From Clostridiales bacterium (GTDB lineage Bacteria; Bacillota; Clostridia; Lachnospirales; WQUN01), in NCBI GenBank assembly GCA_031287685.1, contig JAITSQ010000001.1:1-64000 (forward strand): DNA of 64,000 nt, written 5' to 3'. The translations under genes and the position numbers were made by a program. Below the pieces are notes generated by a model. It was given only the letters and a program-made list of their open reading frames with translations, was not told the origin of the DNA and made no database searches. Positions 58,219 to 64,000 of this stretch are shown here, piece after piece (position 1 is the stretch's first letter; each line of letters starts with the position of its first letter).

Positions 58219-58247
58219 TTGACATAGTGTACAGGCTGGGATACAAT
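58219..58247 (+). promoter_or_regulatory. Strong sigma-A promoter of the Cys-rich peptide operon
   Basis: TTGACA (58219-58224), exactly 17 bp, TACAAT (58242-58247). Transcription would begin near 58254. A CGGAAGC/GCTTCCG hairpin at 58259-58280 would sit at the 5' end of the RNA and may stabilise it. About 110 bp of leader precede the first precursor gene. The remainder of the 58067-58363 gap is A/T-rich without a gene. Confidence 0.82.
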
Positions 58248-58363
58248 GTAATTGTACTCGGAAGCATTTTACAGCTTCCGGTATACGTTGCAATGTTATA
58301 CTGCGCGCGCAGCAAAAACTTTGCGGGAAAACAAAAAATCATAACAAAGAGAGGATTTTCATT

Positions 58364-58483
58364 ATGAATAACATCGAAATCAGCTAAGTTCAGGTAACTG
58401 AAACAAATATCGGAGTTACGCCTTACGGCGGCATTATTTGCGGCATAGGCTGCGACGGCGGGGTTTGCGGAGTATGGTGCTGA
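58364..58483 (+). pseudogene. Cys-rich peptide precursor 1, interrupted by TAA at codon 8
   Basis: ATG 58364 with AGAGAGG upstream reads MNNIEIS, then TAA (58385-58387), then VQVTETNIGVTPYGG and a core CGIGCDGGVCGVWC before TGA. The leader opens exactly as in precursor 2 (MNNIEIN), and the stop aligns with that peptide's Glu8 (GAA to TAA). The full peptide would have 39 residues and four cysteines arranged C-x3-C-x4-C-x3-C. It appears inactivated by one nonsense mutation unless read-through or re-initiation occurs. It is the first gene behind the strong promoter. Confidence 0.7.
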
Positions 58484-58546
58484 TTCGCCCCGCGATAAAA
58501 AATTCAAAAACAAAACAAATAACGACATACTTGGGAGAGTTATATT

Positions 58547-58708
58547 ATGAATAACATAGAAATCAACGAAATCACGATAACCAACCAAAACGCCGCGGCC
58601 GAGCCTTTCGCCGAAGGCGGAGGCTGCTTAGCCTTCACAGGCAACGCCTGCGGCGGGGCTTGCATAAGCCTCAACCCGATCGGCACCGTCTGCGGCTTGG
58701 GCTGCTAA
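58547..58708 (+). CDS. Cys-rich ribosomal peptide precursor 2
   Basis: A 53-residue peptide. Leader MNNIEINEITITNQN is followed by an Ala/Glu segment ending FAEGGG, then a core with six cysteines... in fact five: positions 27, 35, 39, 49 and 53, containing CGGAC and a terminal CGLGC. No hydrophobic signal sequence exists, as expected for a leader recognised by a maturase and an ABC exporter. ATG 58547 follows GGGAGAG. The next gene is a similar precursor and a radical SAM/SPASM enzyme follows. Likely product: thioether-bridged or otherwise cross-linked peptide, perhaps antibacterial. Family-level inference. Confidence 0.82.
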   Translation: MNNIEINEITITNQNAAAEPFAEGGGCLAFTGNACGGACISLNPIGTVCGLGC

Positions 58709-58761
58709 ATCGGTTATTTCCAAATATAGCAATTTTCAAAAAAATTTACGGAGGTATTTTT

Positions 58762-58911
58762 ATGAACGAAATTATTGTAAAAGAATACGACGTTACTTTA
58801 AGTTCCGGCGTTCAAACGACCGTGGTTCCGCTGTCGTCGGAGGGCAGCCTCTGCGGCCTGGGCTGCTCGGGCACAGGTTCGCAATGCGGCATATTCTGCT
58901 CGAACAAGTAA
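58762..58911 (+). CDS. Cys-rich ribosomal peptide precursor 3
   Basis: A 49-residue peptide: leader MNEIIVKEYDVTL..., a hinge PLSSEGS and a core CGLGCSGTGSQCGIFC ending SNK. The four cysteines (31, 35, 42, 46) form two C-G-x-x-C units separated by six residues. The core is rich in Gly and Ser. ATG 58762 follows CGGAGG. Leader similarity to precursors 1 and 2 is limited to MN-(N/E)-I and an acidic/beta-branched pattern, but the core design is the same. It directly precedes two hairpins and the maturase gene. Confidence 0.82.
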   Translation: MNEIIVKEYDVTLSSGVQTTVVPLSSEGSLCGLGCSGTGSQCGIFCSNK

Positions 58912-58927
58912 CCCGATAGATTTTGCA

Positions 58928-59053
58928 CGGTGTTTTGAGTCGTCTGAAAAACTTCAGACGACTCAAAACCGCCTTCTTAATACGCCTCAAATAAGTAAGC
59001 CGCGTAACCACCCACCGTTCGTTTATTTGAGATGTAAAACGGAATTGCTATAC
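58928..59053. repeat. Hairpins and dispersed repeat between precursors and maturase
   Basis: First hairpin: 16-bp perfect arms GTTTTGAGTCGTCTGA (58932-58947) and TCAGACGACTCAAAAC (58954-58969). Flanks CGGTGTTT and ACCGCCTTCTT are the inverted form of the dispersed cassette. Second: CTCAAATAA (58986-58994) / TTATTTGAG (59023-59031). The segment ends GTAAAACGGAATTGCTATA (59035-59053), the family terminal repeat. It could lower read-through into the maturase or protect the 3' end of precursor mRNA. Confidence 0.7.
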
Positions 59054-59125
59054 CGGCGGAAATTCGCCGCAAAGGCGGCGTTCAGAGCCTGTTCAAACAA
59101 CTTTCTCAACACGGGAGGACGCGGA

Positions 59126-60544
59126 ATGAGGGTTCATTTCATTGAAAAAGGGGAGCGCTTTATAGCGTATTTTCCCGACAGCAAAAGATTTTTTAACGTA
59201 AACGAAAATGGGAAAAACCTTATATCCATGCTCGCCTCCGGCGAAGCCGACGACGCTATTTGCCTGAAACTTAATATTAACGCGGAAACTCTGCTTGAAT
59301 ACAAGGACAGAATAGGGGCTTTTCCAAAGACGAAGTCTCCGGATTGTTTAAATCTTTTTGGACAAGCCGAAACGCCGGACAAGCCCGCCGCTGAGAAAAA
59401 AAGCCCCGCGGCTGCCGCGAAAAGGCTGTCTCGGTTAGTCGTCCATCTGGCGAACGCCTGCAATCTTATGTGTCAGTACTGCTACGCGAACGGCGGAGTT
59501 TATCTTTCGCGAGAAGGCGTTATGACCTTGGAAACGCTCAAAAAAACGCTGGACGTGTTTTACGAAAGATACGACGCGATAAGCGCGATTCAAATGTTCG
59601 GCGGGGAGCCGCTTCTTAATATGCCGGCTGTCGAGTATATATGCGAATACGTCCGTGATATTGATAAAAAGCGCGGCTGTACGACGATGCTGGGCATAGT
59701 CACGAACGGGATTCTCATAGACGACAAATTCTGCGATTTGACCGTTAAGTATAACATCAGCGTAACGGTAAGCTATGACGGAGACGAGAAAGTCAACAAC
59801 CTCCTGAGGCCTTTTCCGGACGGCTCCGGCTCTTCGTTAAATATATTGGAAAATATACGCAGACTCAGAAGCGTTTCGTCGCAGCCGAGCGTCATAGAGG
59901 CTACATATACTCAGCATCATATTGATAACGGCGTAAGCGTCCTTGACGCGGTAAAACACATCAAAGATAACTTCCCGGACATTCACGTGCATTTAGTGCC
60001 GGCGGGCGGCGAAAAGGGCTGCGGTTTCGCGCTGAGGGAAATGACCGGGTTTGTGGACTCCGTGGACGAGATTTTTAAGCGGAACAAGGAAACGCCCGGC
60101 GCGAACTATGCGTATTCCCTTGTTCAAAGGTTCGTAAACGGCTTAGCTAGTAAAGCGCCCGGAAGCCAGTACATCTGCGACGCGGGCGTCGGCACGATTT
60201 CCGTTTCGTCGGAGGGTGCCGTTTACCCCTGCTTTATGTTTACCGATATGGAGGATTTAAGGCTCGGCACTATTTTTGACGACAATCTTTTTGAAGGCGA
60301 AAATTTCAAAGGCGTGCTCCGGTGTATGCACGAATTTAATCAAAAATCAGACAACGAGCAATGCCGGAAATGTTATATAGACACGCTGTGCAACGGCTGC
60401 CTGGGGCTGAACCGGATGTTTACGGGAAGCATTTATAAATTGGACGAGCGGGTCTGCGGTATGTTCAGGGACATGGCCGAAAAAGTTATCCTGAACCTGG
60501 CCGAAAATATCGACAAACAAGAATCCATAAAGCAGAGCGTGTAA
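59126..60544 (+). CDS. Radical SAM/SPASM peptide maturase
   Basis: A 472-residue enzyme. Residues 1-70 (VHFIEKGERFIAYFPDSKR, FFNVNENGK) resemble the PqqD-like leader-binding region seen on peptide maturases. The radical SAM cluster is CNLMCQYC (C112, C116, C119), with MFGGEPLLN after it. The C-terminal SPASM domain holds auxiliary-cluster cysteines C351, C369, C413, C416, C422, C425 and C444. Such enzymes install thioether or C-C links in Cys-rich peptides; from memory it resembles clostridial CcpM-type maturases. ATG 59126 follows GGGAGG. Its substrates should be the three precursors just upstream. Confidence 0.92.
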   Translation: MRVHFIEKGERFIAYFPDSKRFFNVNENGKNLISMLASGEADDAICLKLNINAETLLEYKDRIGAFPKTKSPDCLNLFGQAETPDKPAAEKKSPAAAAKRLSRLVVHLANACNLMCQYCYANGGVYLSREGVMTLETLKKTLDVFYERYDAISAIQMFGGEPLLNMPAVEYICEYVRDIDKKRGCTTMLGIVTNGILIDDKFCDLTVKYNISVTVSYDGDEKVNNLLRPFPDGSGSSLNILENIRRLRSVSSQPSVIEATYTQHHIDNGVSVLDAVKHIKDNFPDIHVHLVPAGGEKGCGFALREMTGFVDSVDEIFKRNKETPGANYAYSLVQRFVNGLASKAPGSQYICDAGVGTISVSSEGAVYPCFMFTDMEDLRLGTIFDDNLFEGENFKGVLRCMHEFNQKSDNEQCRKCYIDTLCNGCLGLNRMFTGSIYKLDERVCGMFRDMAEKVILNLAENIDKQESIKQSV

Positions 60545-60546
60545 AT

Positions 60547-62328
60547 ATGTTTAAGGGTATATGGCGCTTAATAAAATACAGTTTCAGCTTCAGCAAAGCG
60601 TATGTTCTTCTTATGGTGCTGAAACAGCTCGTTATTACGTTTATGTCCGTAGCGGGCATAGTCCTGCCCAGATATATAATAGATTCCTCGTTTATTTCGC
60701 GCGATTATTCCGCGGGAATGAGGTTCATATACGTTTTTGTCGGAATTACGCTCTTCGGCGGCGTGCTGTCGTCCTTTTTGTCGAACAAAATCCTGCTGTG
60801 CAAAATGATTGTATATAAAGAATTTCAGCTGTTTATCGGCAGACGAATGATGGAGGCCGATTATCAGCATATAGAAAGCGAAAACTTTCTTAATATAAAA
60901 GAAAAAGCGAGTAAATTTCTCTACGGAAACGGCAGTTTCGCCGGGATACTCGAAGCGTCTATGGACGTGTTCGGAAAAACGCTCGTGCTTATAAGCACGG
61001 CGGCGATTATTTCCTCTCTGGGCGTAAAGCTGTTTCTGCTGCTGCTGCTGACAATTTTCGCCAGCGCCTGGGCGGACGCGCGCTCAAAAAAGAAAAACAT
61101 AATTATAAATATGGAGAGAATACCGATAGAGCGGCGCGGGCTTTATTTCGCCGGCATTATGGCGGATTTTCGCTACGGCAAGGAGATACGCATATATAAT
61201 CTGATTGACTGGCTGTCCGATAAATATAACAAACTGCTTAACCATATGCAGGGGTTTTATGAAAAAACCTGCCGGAATAATTTCAGGGCGTCCGCCGTGG
61301 GTATTCTGCTCAGTTCCGCTCAGCAGTTTATAATATACGTCGTGCTGCTCTTTAAGGCTATGTCGGGGCTGATAACCGTCGGGGCGTTTACGATGTTTAT
61401 CAATTCGGTTTACACGTTTTCGTCGGCCATTAAGGATATCGCCGCCGCCGTCATCGATATGAGCCAGTATAACATTTATTACGCGGCTTTTGAGGAATAC
61501 CTCAGTATTCCTCAGCGCGCGCGCTCCGGAAACCTGAAGCCCGATTTTGACAAAAACAATCTGACCATACGTTTTGACAAGGTTTCCTATAAATATCCCG
61601 GACAGGAAAACTACGCGCTCCGGGATGTAAATATTGAAATAAACCCGGCGGAAAAAATAGCCATAGCGGGCGAAAACGGCGCTGGCAAGACGACGTTCAT
61701 AAAACTGCTGACAAGAATTTATCAGCCTTCGGAGGGCGCGATATATATAAACGGAATCGACATTCAGGAGATAGACTACGGCTTTTATACGTCCCTGTTC
61801 GCCGTCACGTTTCAGGATTTTAAGCTGTTTTCCGTATCGCTTAAGGAAAACGTCGCCCTGTCTGATTCGTCGGCGGAAGATTCCGAGGTTCTCGGCGTTT
61901 TGAAAAAATCCGGGTTTGAAAACAAAATCGAGAATCTGAAAAACGGAGTAAACACAAGCGTATTCAGGGATTTTGATATGTCCGGGTTTGTGCCCTCCGG
62001 CGGCGAAAGCCAGAAAATCGCCATAGCCGCGGCGCTCTACAAAGACTCGCCTATCGTCATACTGGACGAGCCGACGGCGGCGCTTGACCCGCAAGCCGAA
62101 TATAATTTATACACGCAGTTTGATTCGTTATTCAGCAACAAGATTGCGATTTATATTTCACACAGGTTGTCAAGCACCAAATTCTGTGATAAAATTATCA
62201 CAATAGACAAAGGGCGGATTGCCGAATTCGGCTCGCACGAGGATTTAATGCTTCAGGACAAGCTGTACGCGCGGCTTTTCAAGATGCAAGCGGAATTATA
62301 TTTCGCGCGGAAGCAGGATATTTTCTAA
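60547..62328 (+). CDS. Peptide-exporting ABC transporter (fused membrane and ATPase domains)
   Basis: A 593-residue half-transporter. Six membrane helices lie in residues 1 to about 310, and the ATPase domain has Walker A GENGAGKTTF (about 374), the Q loop FAVTFQDFKLF, signature PSGGESQ (about 483) and Walker B VILDEPTAALD (about 503), then the switch His in ISHRLSS. There is no N-terminal C39 peptidase, so leader removal needs another protease. It begins 2 bp after the maturase stop, implying coupling. Likely exports the modified peptides. Confidence 0.93.
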   Translation: MFKGIWRLIKYSFSFSKAYVLLMVLKQLVITFMSVAGIVLPRYIIDSSFISRDYSAGMRFIYVFVGITLFGGVLSSFLSNKILLCKMIVYKEFQLFIGRRMMEADYQHIESENFLNIKEKASKFLYGNGSFAGILEASMDVFGKTLVLISTAAIISSLGVKLFLLLLLTIFASAWADARSKKKNIIINMERIPIERRGLYFAGIMADFRYGKEIRIYNLIDWLSDKYNKLLNHMQGFYEKTCRNNFRASAVGILLSSAQQFIIYVVLLFKAMSGLITVGAFTMFINSVYTFSSAIKDIAAAVIDMSQYNIYYAAFEEYLSIPQRARSGNLKPDFDKNNLTIRFDKVSYKYPGQENYALRDVNIEINPAEKIAIAGENGAGKTTFIKLLTRIYQPSEGAIYINGIDIQEIDYGFYTSLFAVTFQDFKLFSVSLKENVALSDSSAEDSEVLGVLKKSGFENKIENLKNGVNTSVFRDFDMSGFVPSGGESQKIAIAAALYKDSPIVILDEPTAALDPQAEYNLYTQFDSLFSNKIAIYISHRLSSTKFCDKIITIDKGRIAEFGSHEDLMLQDKLYARLFKMQAELYFARKQDIF

Positions 62329-62336
62329 AAACCCAG

Positions 62337-62455
62337 AGCAAGGAAGCGGCTTTTTGGCGCGGTCACGAGCGTTTGCAACAGCTTTTTGGCGGAGCCAAAA
62401 TAGCGAACGCAAACGTGGGGAGGCGGCGAAAAACGCTGCGCAAGCCGTCGTTTCT
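62337..62455. repeat. GC-rich palindromic segment, probable diverged repeat copy H
   Basis: GCAAGGAAGCGGCTTTTTGGCG at the left end and GGCGAAAAACGCTGCGC at the right resemble the family cassette. GAGCGTTTGC / GCGAACGCAAAC-type arms lie inside. It separates the exporter from the next ABC gene. Confidence 0.5.
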
Positions 62456-62484
62456 ATACCTATGGGTACTCGGAGGGCTTAAAT

Positions 62485-63408
62485 TTGAACGAATATATTT
62501 TACAGACCCATAATATCTCAAAGGAATACAACGGCGTAAAGACGCTTGACGACGTAAGCGTCAGCATCCGCGCCGGGCGTCTGTACGGGTTTATCGGGCA
62601 AAACGGCGCGGGCAAAACGACTTTGTTCCGCATAATAGCGGGACTGTCCTGCCCCACGAGCGGCAGGCTCTCCTTATTCGGGGCGTCGGGCGGAAAAGAG
62701 CTTGCCGCCGCGCGCAGGCGTATGGGCAGCCTTATCGAAACCCCGGCGCTTTATCCCGATATGACCGCGTATGAGAACCTGGAAATACATCAGGTGCGGG
62801 CAAAAACGAAAGACAGGCGCGCAATCAACGAAACCCTTGAGTTAGTCAGCCTTACCGACACGGGCAAAAAACGCGCGAAGGATTTTTCGCTTGGTATGAA
62901 GCAGCGCCTGGCGATTGGCGCGGCCCTCGTCGGCGATCCGGAGTTTTTATTGCTGGACGAGCCTATAAACGGGCTTGACCCGCTTGGCATAGCGGAAATG
63001 CGAGAGGCGCTCCGGCGGCTCTGCTCCGAGCGGAAAATGACCATACTAATAAGCAGTCATTTACTGCCGGAGCTTTATCAGCTGGCCTCTAACTATATTT
63101 TTATCGACCGCGGCCGAATCCTTGAGGAAACGACGCTGTCCCGGCTCTGCGAAAAATGCGCGCGGCATATATCCATTACCGTGAACGACACGGCTCTGGC
63201 CGCCAGCGTTCTGGAGCGCGACTTAGGCGCGTCGAATTTCAAGGCAGCGCCGGACGGCACGATTGAGCTGTTTGATTTTGTAGACCGGCCGGAAGCCGTG
63301 TCGAAAGCCCTTGTTGAGCGCGGAGTCGCTCTTTCAAGAATCTCGGCGGAGAGCGAAAGCCTCGAAAGTTATTTCATCAATTTGATAGGCGGTGGTGAGC
63401 GTGGCTGA
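62485..63408 (+). CDS. ABC transporter ATPase, BcrA/LanF (self-protection) type
   Basis: A 307-residue ATPase with Walker A GQNGAGKTTLFRI, Q loop ETPALYPDMTAYENLEI, signature SLGMKQRLAIG and Walker B FLLLDEPINGLDP, where Asn rather than Glu-adjacent residues fits the BcrA branch, then SSHLLPEL. The C-terminal tail (about 215-307) is typical of lantibiotic immunity and bacitracin-resistance ATPases. TTG 62485 follows CGGAGGG. With the permease gene that overlaps its end it likely protects the producer from its own peptide, or senses and exports others. Confidence 0.88.
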   Translation: MNEYILQTHNISKEYNGVKTLDDVSVSIRAGRLYGFIGQNGAGKTTLFRIIAGLSCPTSGRLSLFGASGGKELAAARRRMGSLIETPALYPDMTAYENLEIHQVRAKTKDRRAINETLELVSLTDTGKKRAKDFSLGMKQRLAIGAALVGDPEFLLLDEPINGLDPLGIAEMREALRRLCSERKMTILISSHLLPELYQLASNYIFIDRGRILEETTLSRLCEKCARHISITVNDTALAASVLERDLGASNFKAAPDGTIELFDFVDRPEAVSKALVERGVALSRISAESESLESYFINLIGGGERG

Positions 63409-64000
63409 TATTATCAGAGCGGAGCTTTATAACCTTAAGCGCAGCCGGGGGTATAAATGGCTGCTGGCGGTGGACGCGGCGCTGTGCGTTCTTCTAATCG
63501 TCTCCTTACTCCTTCAGCATAGAGTCGTCTATTCGGGAAAGCTGTTGTTTGAAAACGGGTTCCGGGATTTTTTATTCATCATTATCTGCGCGGTTTTCGC
63601 GGGGCTTTCTATCGGCGCTGATTTCTCGAGCAGGACGATTAACCGCCATATCGCGTCCGGCTATGAGCGCGTGAGCGTGCTGGCCGGCAAAACCGCCGTA
63701 TATTTTATCGCCGCGGTGCCGCTGTTTTCTATTTACCCGATTATTTCGGGTATCGCCGGAAGCCTGATTTGGAGTTGGGGCGAACCGCTTACGGCTTCCT
63801 CCATAGCCCATATAGCGCTTGTTTTTATAATGAGCGCGACGCTGAATCTCGGAATATGCGGTTTTTTCGTTTTCTGTTCTTTTCTGCTTCAGGACGCGGG
63901 CAAGTCTATCGCCTGCTCAATCGTGGGGCATTTAGTACTGAGTACGATGCTCCGGATGATTGGCAGAGCCGTCCCTTGGTTCGGCAAAATAACAAACTTG
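63401..64000 (+). CDS. ABC-2 type permease (LanE/LanG-like), cut by the window end
   Basis: Open for 200 codons to the last base. GTG 63401 overlaps the ATPase gene by 8 bp and has GGTGGTGAG before it. It starts ADIIRAELYNLKRSRGYKW, the common start of ABC-2 permeases of immunity transporters, followed by membrane segments at about residues 22-38, 55-70 and 95-115 and beyond. IGADFSSRTINRHIASG is a typical cytoplasmic loop. It should form a membrane complex with the preceding ATPase, possibly with a second permease beyond the window. Confidence 0.85.
   Translation, partial: MADIIRAELYNLKRSRGYKWLLAVDAALCVLLIVSLLLQHRVVYSGKLLFENGFRDFLFIIICAVFAGLSIGADFSSRTINRHIASGYERVSVLAGKTAVYFIAAVPLFSIYPIISGIAGSLIWSWGEPLTASSIAHIALVFIMSATLNLGICGFFVFCSFLLQDAGKSIACSIVGHLVLSTMLRMIGRAVPWFGKITNL

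What the first reader, a model, noticed from the sequence alone, without database searches (positions are those of the whole stretch)
58219..64000. Compact ribosomal-peptide locus built on C-G-x-x-C cores
One strong promoter, three short Cys-rich precursors without signal peptides, a radical SAM/SPASM maturase with a leader-binding-like N-terminus, an exporter lacking a peptidase, and a LanFEG-like transporter form a complete production and self-protection unit. The gene order and families are established for sactipeptide/ranthipeptide-like systems; the precursor sequences do not look like any subtilosin- or thurincin-type peptide I know. The product is probably undescribed.
Basis: partly seen in the sequence, partly recalled or inferred. 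Interest (0 to 1): 0.85.

Follow-up and report, generated by a model that had tools for sequence, protein, structure and literature searches.

The report
Uncharacterised radical-SAM peptide gene cluster
This is a small bacterial gene cluster that very probably makes an undescribed cysteine-rich modified peptide; its enzyme belongs to an unnamed family whose relatives carry matching peptides in other Clostridia, but one of the three peptide genes here is broken by a stop codon.

Summary
The finding is real in outline. A promoter-like site, short Cys-rich ORFs, an RRE–radical SAM–SPASM maturase, a peptidase-free ABC exporter and an ABC-2 ATPase/permease lie where described. Corrections: precursor 1 has an in-frame TAA at codon 8, so only two precursors are intact. 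The ATPase/permease pair follows a dispersed genomic repeat, matches the LanF model only below its cut-off and has one permease, so self-protection is unproven. No leader protease was found.
New evidence: ten related maturases form one supported clade with the window enzyme, outside SCIFF, PapB and sulfatase-maturase rows, and share a SPASM variant (CX2CX5CX2C). Short precursors sit beside them; two window precursors have the same Cys spacing (4-5-4, 4-7-4) as two in another bacterial family. A hairpin separates precursors from maturase in all seven loci folded. Several relatives carry an M50-type protease and ABC genes, as in epipeptide operons.
Three close relatives pair with Cys-free Gly-Gly peptides sharing the leader motif, so thioether chemistry is likely but not certain. 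Best reading: an undescribed RiPP family, probably thioether-bridged; a new variant of a known kind.

The parts
58219..58247 (+). promoter-like site (TTGACA-17-TACAAT)
   Evidence: 11 of 12 consensus matches; consensus only
58364..58483 (+). precursor 1: MNNIEIS, TAA at 58385-58387 (codon 8), then a frame ending ...VTPYGGIICGIGCDGGVCGVWC; interrupted. Its core matches an intact precursor of L052 (z 14, same 4-5-4 Cys spacing)
58547..58708 (+). precursor 2, 53 aa, 5 Cys, CGxxC twice
58762..58911 (+). precursor 3, 49 aa, CGLGC and CGIFC, Cys spacing 4-7-4 as in a precursor of L052
58929..58973 (+). RNA hairpin between precursors and maturase (about -30 kcal/mol, z -6), proposed attenuator or stabiliser
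   Evidence: hairpins between precursor and maturase also in L052, L061, L063, L160, L158 and outgroup L057
59126..60544 (+). radical SAM/SPASM maturase, 472 aa; CNLMCQYC cluster motif; SPASM Cys 351, 369, 413, 416, 422, 425, 444 with CX2CX5CX2C
59126..59320 (+). RRE (leader-binding winged-helix domain) of the maturase, residues 1-65
60547..62328 (+). ABC exporter, MsbA-like, 593 aa, no peptidase domain found
62485..63408 (+). ABC-2 type ATPase, 307 aa (BcrA/LanF-like); membership of the cluster likely but not certain
63392..64000 (+). ABC-2 type permease, runs on to contig position 64144 (250 aa)

Best explanation
It is the cluster of an undescribed RiPP family. Short precursors carry an N-terminal leader (E-[IV]-x-hydrophobic-x-[ED/S]-hydrophobic) that the maturase's RRE binds; the radical SAM centre, with the SPASM auxiliary clusters, then installs modifications in a short Gly/Cys-rich core, most likely thioether links from the CGxxC cysteines to a carbon of a neighbouring residue (sacti- or ranthipeptide type). 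A hairpin after the last precursor keeps precursor transcripts in excess over the maturase. The MsbA-like exporter takes the product out; the ATPase/permease may protect the producer. In this genome precursor 1 is interrupted, so the product would come from precursors 2 and 3. Shown by sequence or model: anatomy, RRE fold, SPASM cysteines, clade membership, conserved core spacing, hairpins. Inferred: leader-RRE binding, thioether linkage, attenuation, export, antimicrobial or signalling role, immunity.
For: Ten relatives group with the window maturase in one clade (97/90), away from SCIFF, PapB and sulfatase-maturase rows. Short precursors were read next to them. Cys spacing 4-5-4 and 4-7-4 is shared by two window precursors and two of L052, at 42% maturase identity. 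CGxxC 6 against 0.2 expected. Shared leader motif in 11 of 15 precursors against 0.29 in shuffles (pattern chosen after seeing the data). Hairpin between precursor and maturase in all seven loci folded, z -3.3 to -6.8; six are of the clade including the window, the seventh is outgroup L057. N-terminus resembles the RREs of CteB, lasso B1, McbB and PqqD; the full model matches CteB, which makes a Cys thioether, Z 35.2, rmsd 3.8, 414 residues. Odd Cys numbers (3 or 5) in several cores do not suit disulfides alone. Lower GC of maturase and exporter (0.487, 0.457) than of the window (0.549) and patchy occurrence suggest horizontal spread.
Against: Three relatives in the same five-row subclade (98/90) have Cys-free Gly-Gly precursors. 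Anaerobic sulfatase maturases also match the catalytic part of the model at Z 33, so the fold does not decide the chemistry. Precursor 1 is broken and no leader protease was found in the cluster; a search of the genome with a relative's M50 protease found nothing, though that is one query without a positive control. No expression or mass data.
Confidence: 0.62

Rival explanations
1. It is a RiPP cluster, but the maturase does not use Cys sulfur: it makes a Cys-independent change (epimerisation, carbon-carbon or other link), and the CGxxC cysteines form disulfides or bind a metal.
For: Cys-free precursors with the same leader motif sit beside maturases of L054 (41% identical), L055 and L034, in the same supported subclade. 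In L054 no other radical SAM peptide enzyme was seen near them. Relatives of the Cys kind carry a protease with some similarity to daptide and epipeptide (YydH/LiaK) metalloproteases.
Against: CGxxC cores recur in most Cys-type relatives and the closest full-length solved structure is a thioether-forming enzyme; odd Cys numbers do not suit disulfides. Matching of the Cys-free peptides to these maturases is by neighbourhood and leader motif only.
Confidence: 0.23
2. The cluster is decaying in this genome and makes little or no product: precursor 1 is truncated and the leader protease seen in several relatives is absent.
For: In-frame TAA at codon 8 with no later start; M50 gene present in L052, L061, L063, L159, L057 and L064 but not here.
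Against: Precursors 2 and 3, maturase and exporter are open with conserved cysteines; precursor 3 keeps the spacing of its L052 counterpart. The TAA comes from one assembly and could be an assembly or strain variant. L062 and L158 also showed no M50 gene directly after the maturase.
Confidence: 0.1
3. The maturase acts on a protein (QhpD- or sulfatase-maturase-like) and the short ORFs are incidental.
For: QhpD model 117 bits and sulfatase-maturase model 80 bits.
Against: Both are far below their cut-offs (453 and 349); the tree separates it from sulfatase maturases; precursor-like ORFs recur beside relatives.
Confidence: 0.03

Closest known systems
SCIFF / CteA-CteB (ranthipeptide)
   Same: RRE + radical SAM + SPASM; best full-length structural match (5wgg, Z 35.2); Cys-rich short precursor
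   Different: 148 bits against a cut-off of 425; separate clade; SPASM CX2CX5CX2C instead of CX2CX5CX3C; cores CGxxC, not six Cys in about 45 residues; patchy rather than widespread
PapA-PapB (freyrasin, ranthipeptide)
   Same: best NCBIfam match of the maturase (175 bits)
   Different: cut-off is 340; PapA has CX3D/E motifs (PMC9413430), which the window cores lack; a PapB over the cut-off (L141) falls outside the clade
CcpM / clostridial Cys-rich peptides (TIGR04068)
   Same: Cys-rich precursor with SPASM maturase
   Different: 99 bits against a cut-off of 500; no precursor model matched
Sactipeptides (thuricin CD, subtilosin, ruminococcin C)
   Same: short Cys-bearing cores and a SPASM/twitch maturase; more than one precursor per cluster, as in two-component thuricin CD (PMC3132745, abstract)
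   Different: from general knowledge, sactipeptide cores such as thuricin CD have a Cys-bearing N-terminal half and an acceptor-bearing C-terminal half; here cores end 0-3 residues after the last Cys
Epipeptide operon (epe/yyd)
   Same: relatives' order precursor - radical SAM - M50-type protease - ABC ATPase - permease; order of the epe operon from general knowledge
   Different: window has no M50 gene; maturase is RRE-SPASM of the CteB fold, and EpeE structures rank far lower (Z about 17)

Membership tests
RiPP biosynthetic cluster with radical SAM/SPASM maturase | radical SAM CX3CX2C motif and SPASM domain | tested here: met
RiPP biosynthetic cluster with radical SAM/SPASM maturase | leader-binding RRE domain | tested here: met
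   fold only: (CteB RRE Z 7.4, lasso B1, McbB, PqqD); binding not tested
RiPP biosynthetic cluster with radical SAM/SPASM maturase | adjacent short precursor(s) conserved with the maturase | tested here: met
Canonical SPASM motif CX9-15GX4C-CX2CX5CX3C-C (PMC6231123) | exact Cys spacing | tested here: not met
   CX12GX4C present, but CX2CX5CX2C; same in the whole 11-row clade as far as checked (motif)
PapB ranthipeptide maturase (NF047865) | score over curated cut-off 340 | tested here: not met
   175 bits
SCIFF maturase (TIGR03974) | score over cut-off 425 | tested here: not met
   148 bits
CcpM (TIGR04068) | score over cut-off 500 | tested here: not met
   99 bits
Ranthipeptide or sactipeptide | Cys thioether to a carbon of another residue | not testable with these tools
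   needs mass spectrometry or NMR of the product
LanFEG-type immunity transporter (TIGR03740) | ATPase over cut-off 309.75 | tested here: not met
   206 bits
LanFEG-type immunity transporter (TIGR03740) | two permeases (E and G) | tested here: not met
   one permease, then a convergent gene
Peptidase-containing bacteriocin exporter | C39 peptidase domain | tested here: not met
   no match in Pfam scan

The most novel reading that the evidence does not exclude
One RRE-SPASM enzyme family has kept a common leader motif while swapping cores between Cys-rich CGxxC peptides and Cys-free Gly-Gly, Pro-rich peptides, which would mean its chemistry does not need Cys and is of a kind not yet described for this group.
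Probability: 0.2. Interest if true: 0.7.

Novelty: new variant of a known kind. Interest (0 to 1): 0.5.

Why it matters
It marks out a maturase clade with no matching model in NCBIfam and with conserved, testable precursors in several Clostridia, one in a named species (Paraclostridium ghonii). If the Cys-free branch is really modified by the same kind of enzyme, the family would be a natural comparison of what decides core chemistry when the leader and enzyme are shared.

Tried and rejected
Single-sequence scan of genome contigs for the maturase found no relative; the alignment-based scan did. No NCBIfam model for any precursor and no Pfam model for the window's. Text searches for core strings found nothing relevant; the DNA-like strings matched primers; absence from this library is not absence from the literature. 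Plasmid records gave only distant matches, under 30% identity in the rows shown. The Rrf2 regulator and tRNA-Met upstream were considered and set aside as ordinary neighbours. Considered and rejected: QhpD-like or sulfatase-maturase role; SCIFF, PapB or CcpM membership. L056, L058, L059 and G024 loci were looked at for Cys-rich precursors without a clear set.

Full report
Observation. The stretch 58219-64000 holds, on the + strand, a promoter-like site (11 of 12), three Cys-rich reading frames, a 472-aa maturase, a 593-aa exporter, a 307-aa ATPase and a permease that runs out of the window and ends at contig position 64144. The first frame is not an intact gene: ATG at 58364, TAA at 58385-58387, and no ATG, GTG or TTG before the Cys core. 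Six CGxxC motifs in the three cores compare with 0.2 in shuffled sequences.

Maturase. It has radical SAM and SPASM matches. Its best NCBIfam matches are peptide maturases, all far below cut-off: PapB 175/340, nif11 153/519, SCIFF 148/425, QhpD 117/453, CcpM 99/500. The AlphaFold model (mean pLDDT 86) matches CteB over its whole length (Z 35.2, rmsd 3.8, 414 residues) and sulfatase maturases over the catalytic part. Residues 1-70 folded alone have a beta-beta-beta-alpha-alpha-alpha order and match CteB's RRE, lasso B1 proteins, McbB and PqqD, with Z of 7.4 at most, a middling value that the RRE-rich top of the list makes more persuasive. The SPASM motif is CX12GX4C, then CX2CX5CX2C, one residue shorter than the canonical CX2CX5CX3C (PMC6231123); the short form is shared by the rows of the window's larger clade that were checked (one row, L058, gave no match; L158-L160 were not scanned), while SCIFF, PapB and sulfatase-maturase rows have CX3C.

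Relatives. Searches of sampled genomes and of genome contigs gave ten maturases that form one clade with the window enzyme (97/90), with a five-row subclade (98/90) of window, L052, L054, L055 and L034. Occurrence is patchy: 4 of 207 genomes in the family of L052, 2 of 299 in a phylum sample that includes the window's own genome.

Precursors of relatives. L052 has three, one of them with Cys spacing 4-5-4 like window precursor 1 and one with 4-7-4 like window precursor 3. L061 (Paraclostridium ghonii), L158, L062 and outgroup L057 (five tandem copies) carry CGxxC cores; L063, L159 and L160 carry a GCPHGWFG-x-x-C type. L054, L055 and L034 carry Cys-free Gly-Gly, Pro-rich peptides. A leader motif E-[IV]-x-[IVLF]-x-[EDS]-hydrophobic occurs in 11 of 15 precursors of both kinds against 0.29 in shuffles; the pattern was chosen after seeing the sequences. 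Hairpins between the last precursor and the maturase were found in all seven loci folded: the window, L052, L061, L063, L160 and L158 of the clade (z -3.3 to -6.8) and outgroup L057 (z -5.0).

Neighbours. In L052, L061, L063, L159, L057 and L064 a membrane HExxH protease follows the maturase, similar to daptide and, for one tested, YydH/LiaK proteases. L160 has a gene of similar length and start in that place whose motif was not examined. L063, L159, L160 and L061 also have an ATPase and two permeases. The window has neither the protease nor a second permease, and a query with L052's protease found nothing in its genome. In L055, which has Gly-Gly leaders, an ABC exporter with a C39-like start lies nearby.

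Cluster limits. The 156 bases between exporter and ATPase are largely a dispersed repeat, with about 30 strong copies in the genome. Maturase and exporter have lower GC (0.487, 0.457) than the window (0.549), the ATPase does not (0.555). The ATPase/permease may therefore be a separate neighbour, although its ATPase is 30-32% identical to those of L061 and L063 over nearly its whole length.

Conclusion. A RiPP cluster of an undescribed family is about 95% likely; Cys thioether chemistry about 0.62; a Cys-independent change is the main rival. Whether the product is antimicrobial or a signal is open.

Noticed in passing
window 62329-62444: Dispersed repeat of roughly 105-116 bases with about 30 strong copies across the genome, lying between exporter and ATPase.
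   Followed up: partly
L055:6283-11304, L034:9166-9765, L054:7122-7805: Cys-free Gly-Gly peptides with repeated TG[ILF][IV][AS]xP or LYGI motifs; L055 and L034 also hold a second radical SAM enzyme with extra C-terminal repeats.
   Followed up: partly
L057:8738-9560: Five near-identical tandem precursors ending CGGGCGAGC or CGGGCGGGC beside a more distant maturase and an M50-type protease.
   Followed up: partly
L062:4304-6977: Three similar membrane proteins (CPBP-like by eye) interleaved with two tiny CGxxC-type ORFs, all three ending in the same 20 or so residues.
   Followed up: no
L034:6105-7478 and L055:2379-3770: A TraB/GumN-like gene (by eye) lies beside both Gly-Gly peptide loci of the two related genomes.
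   Followed up: no
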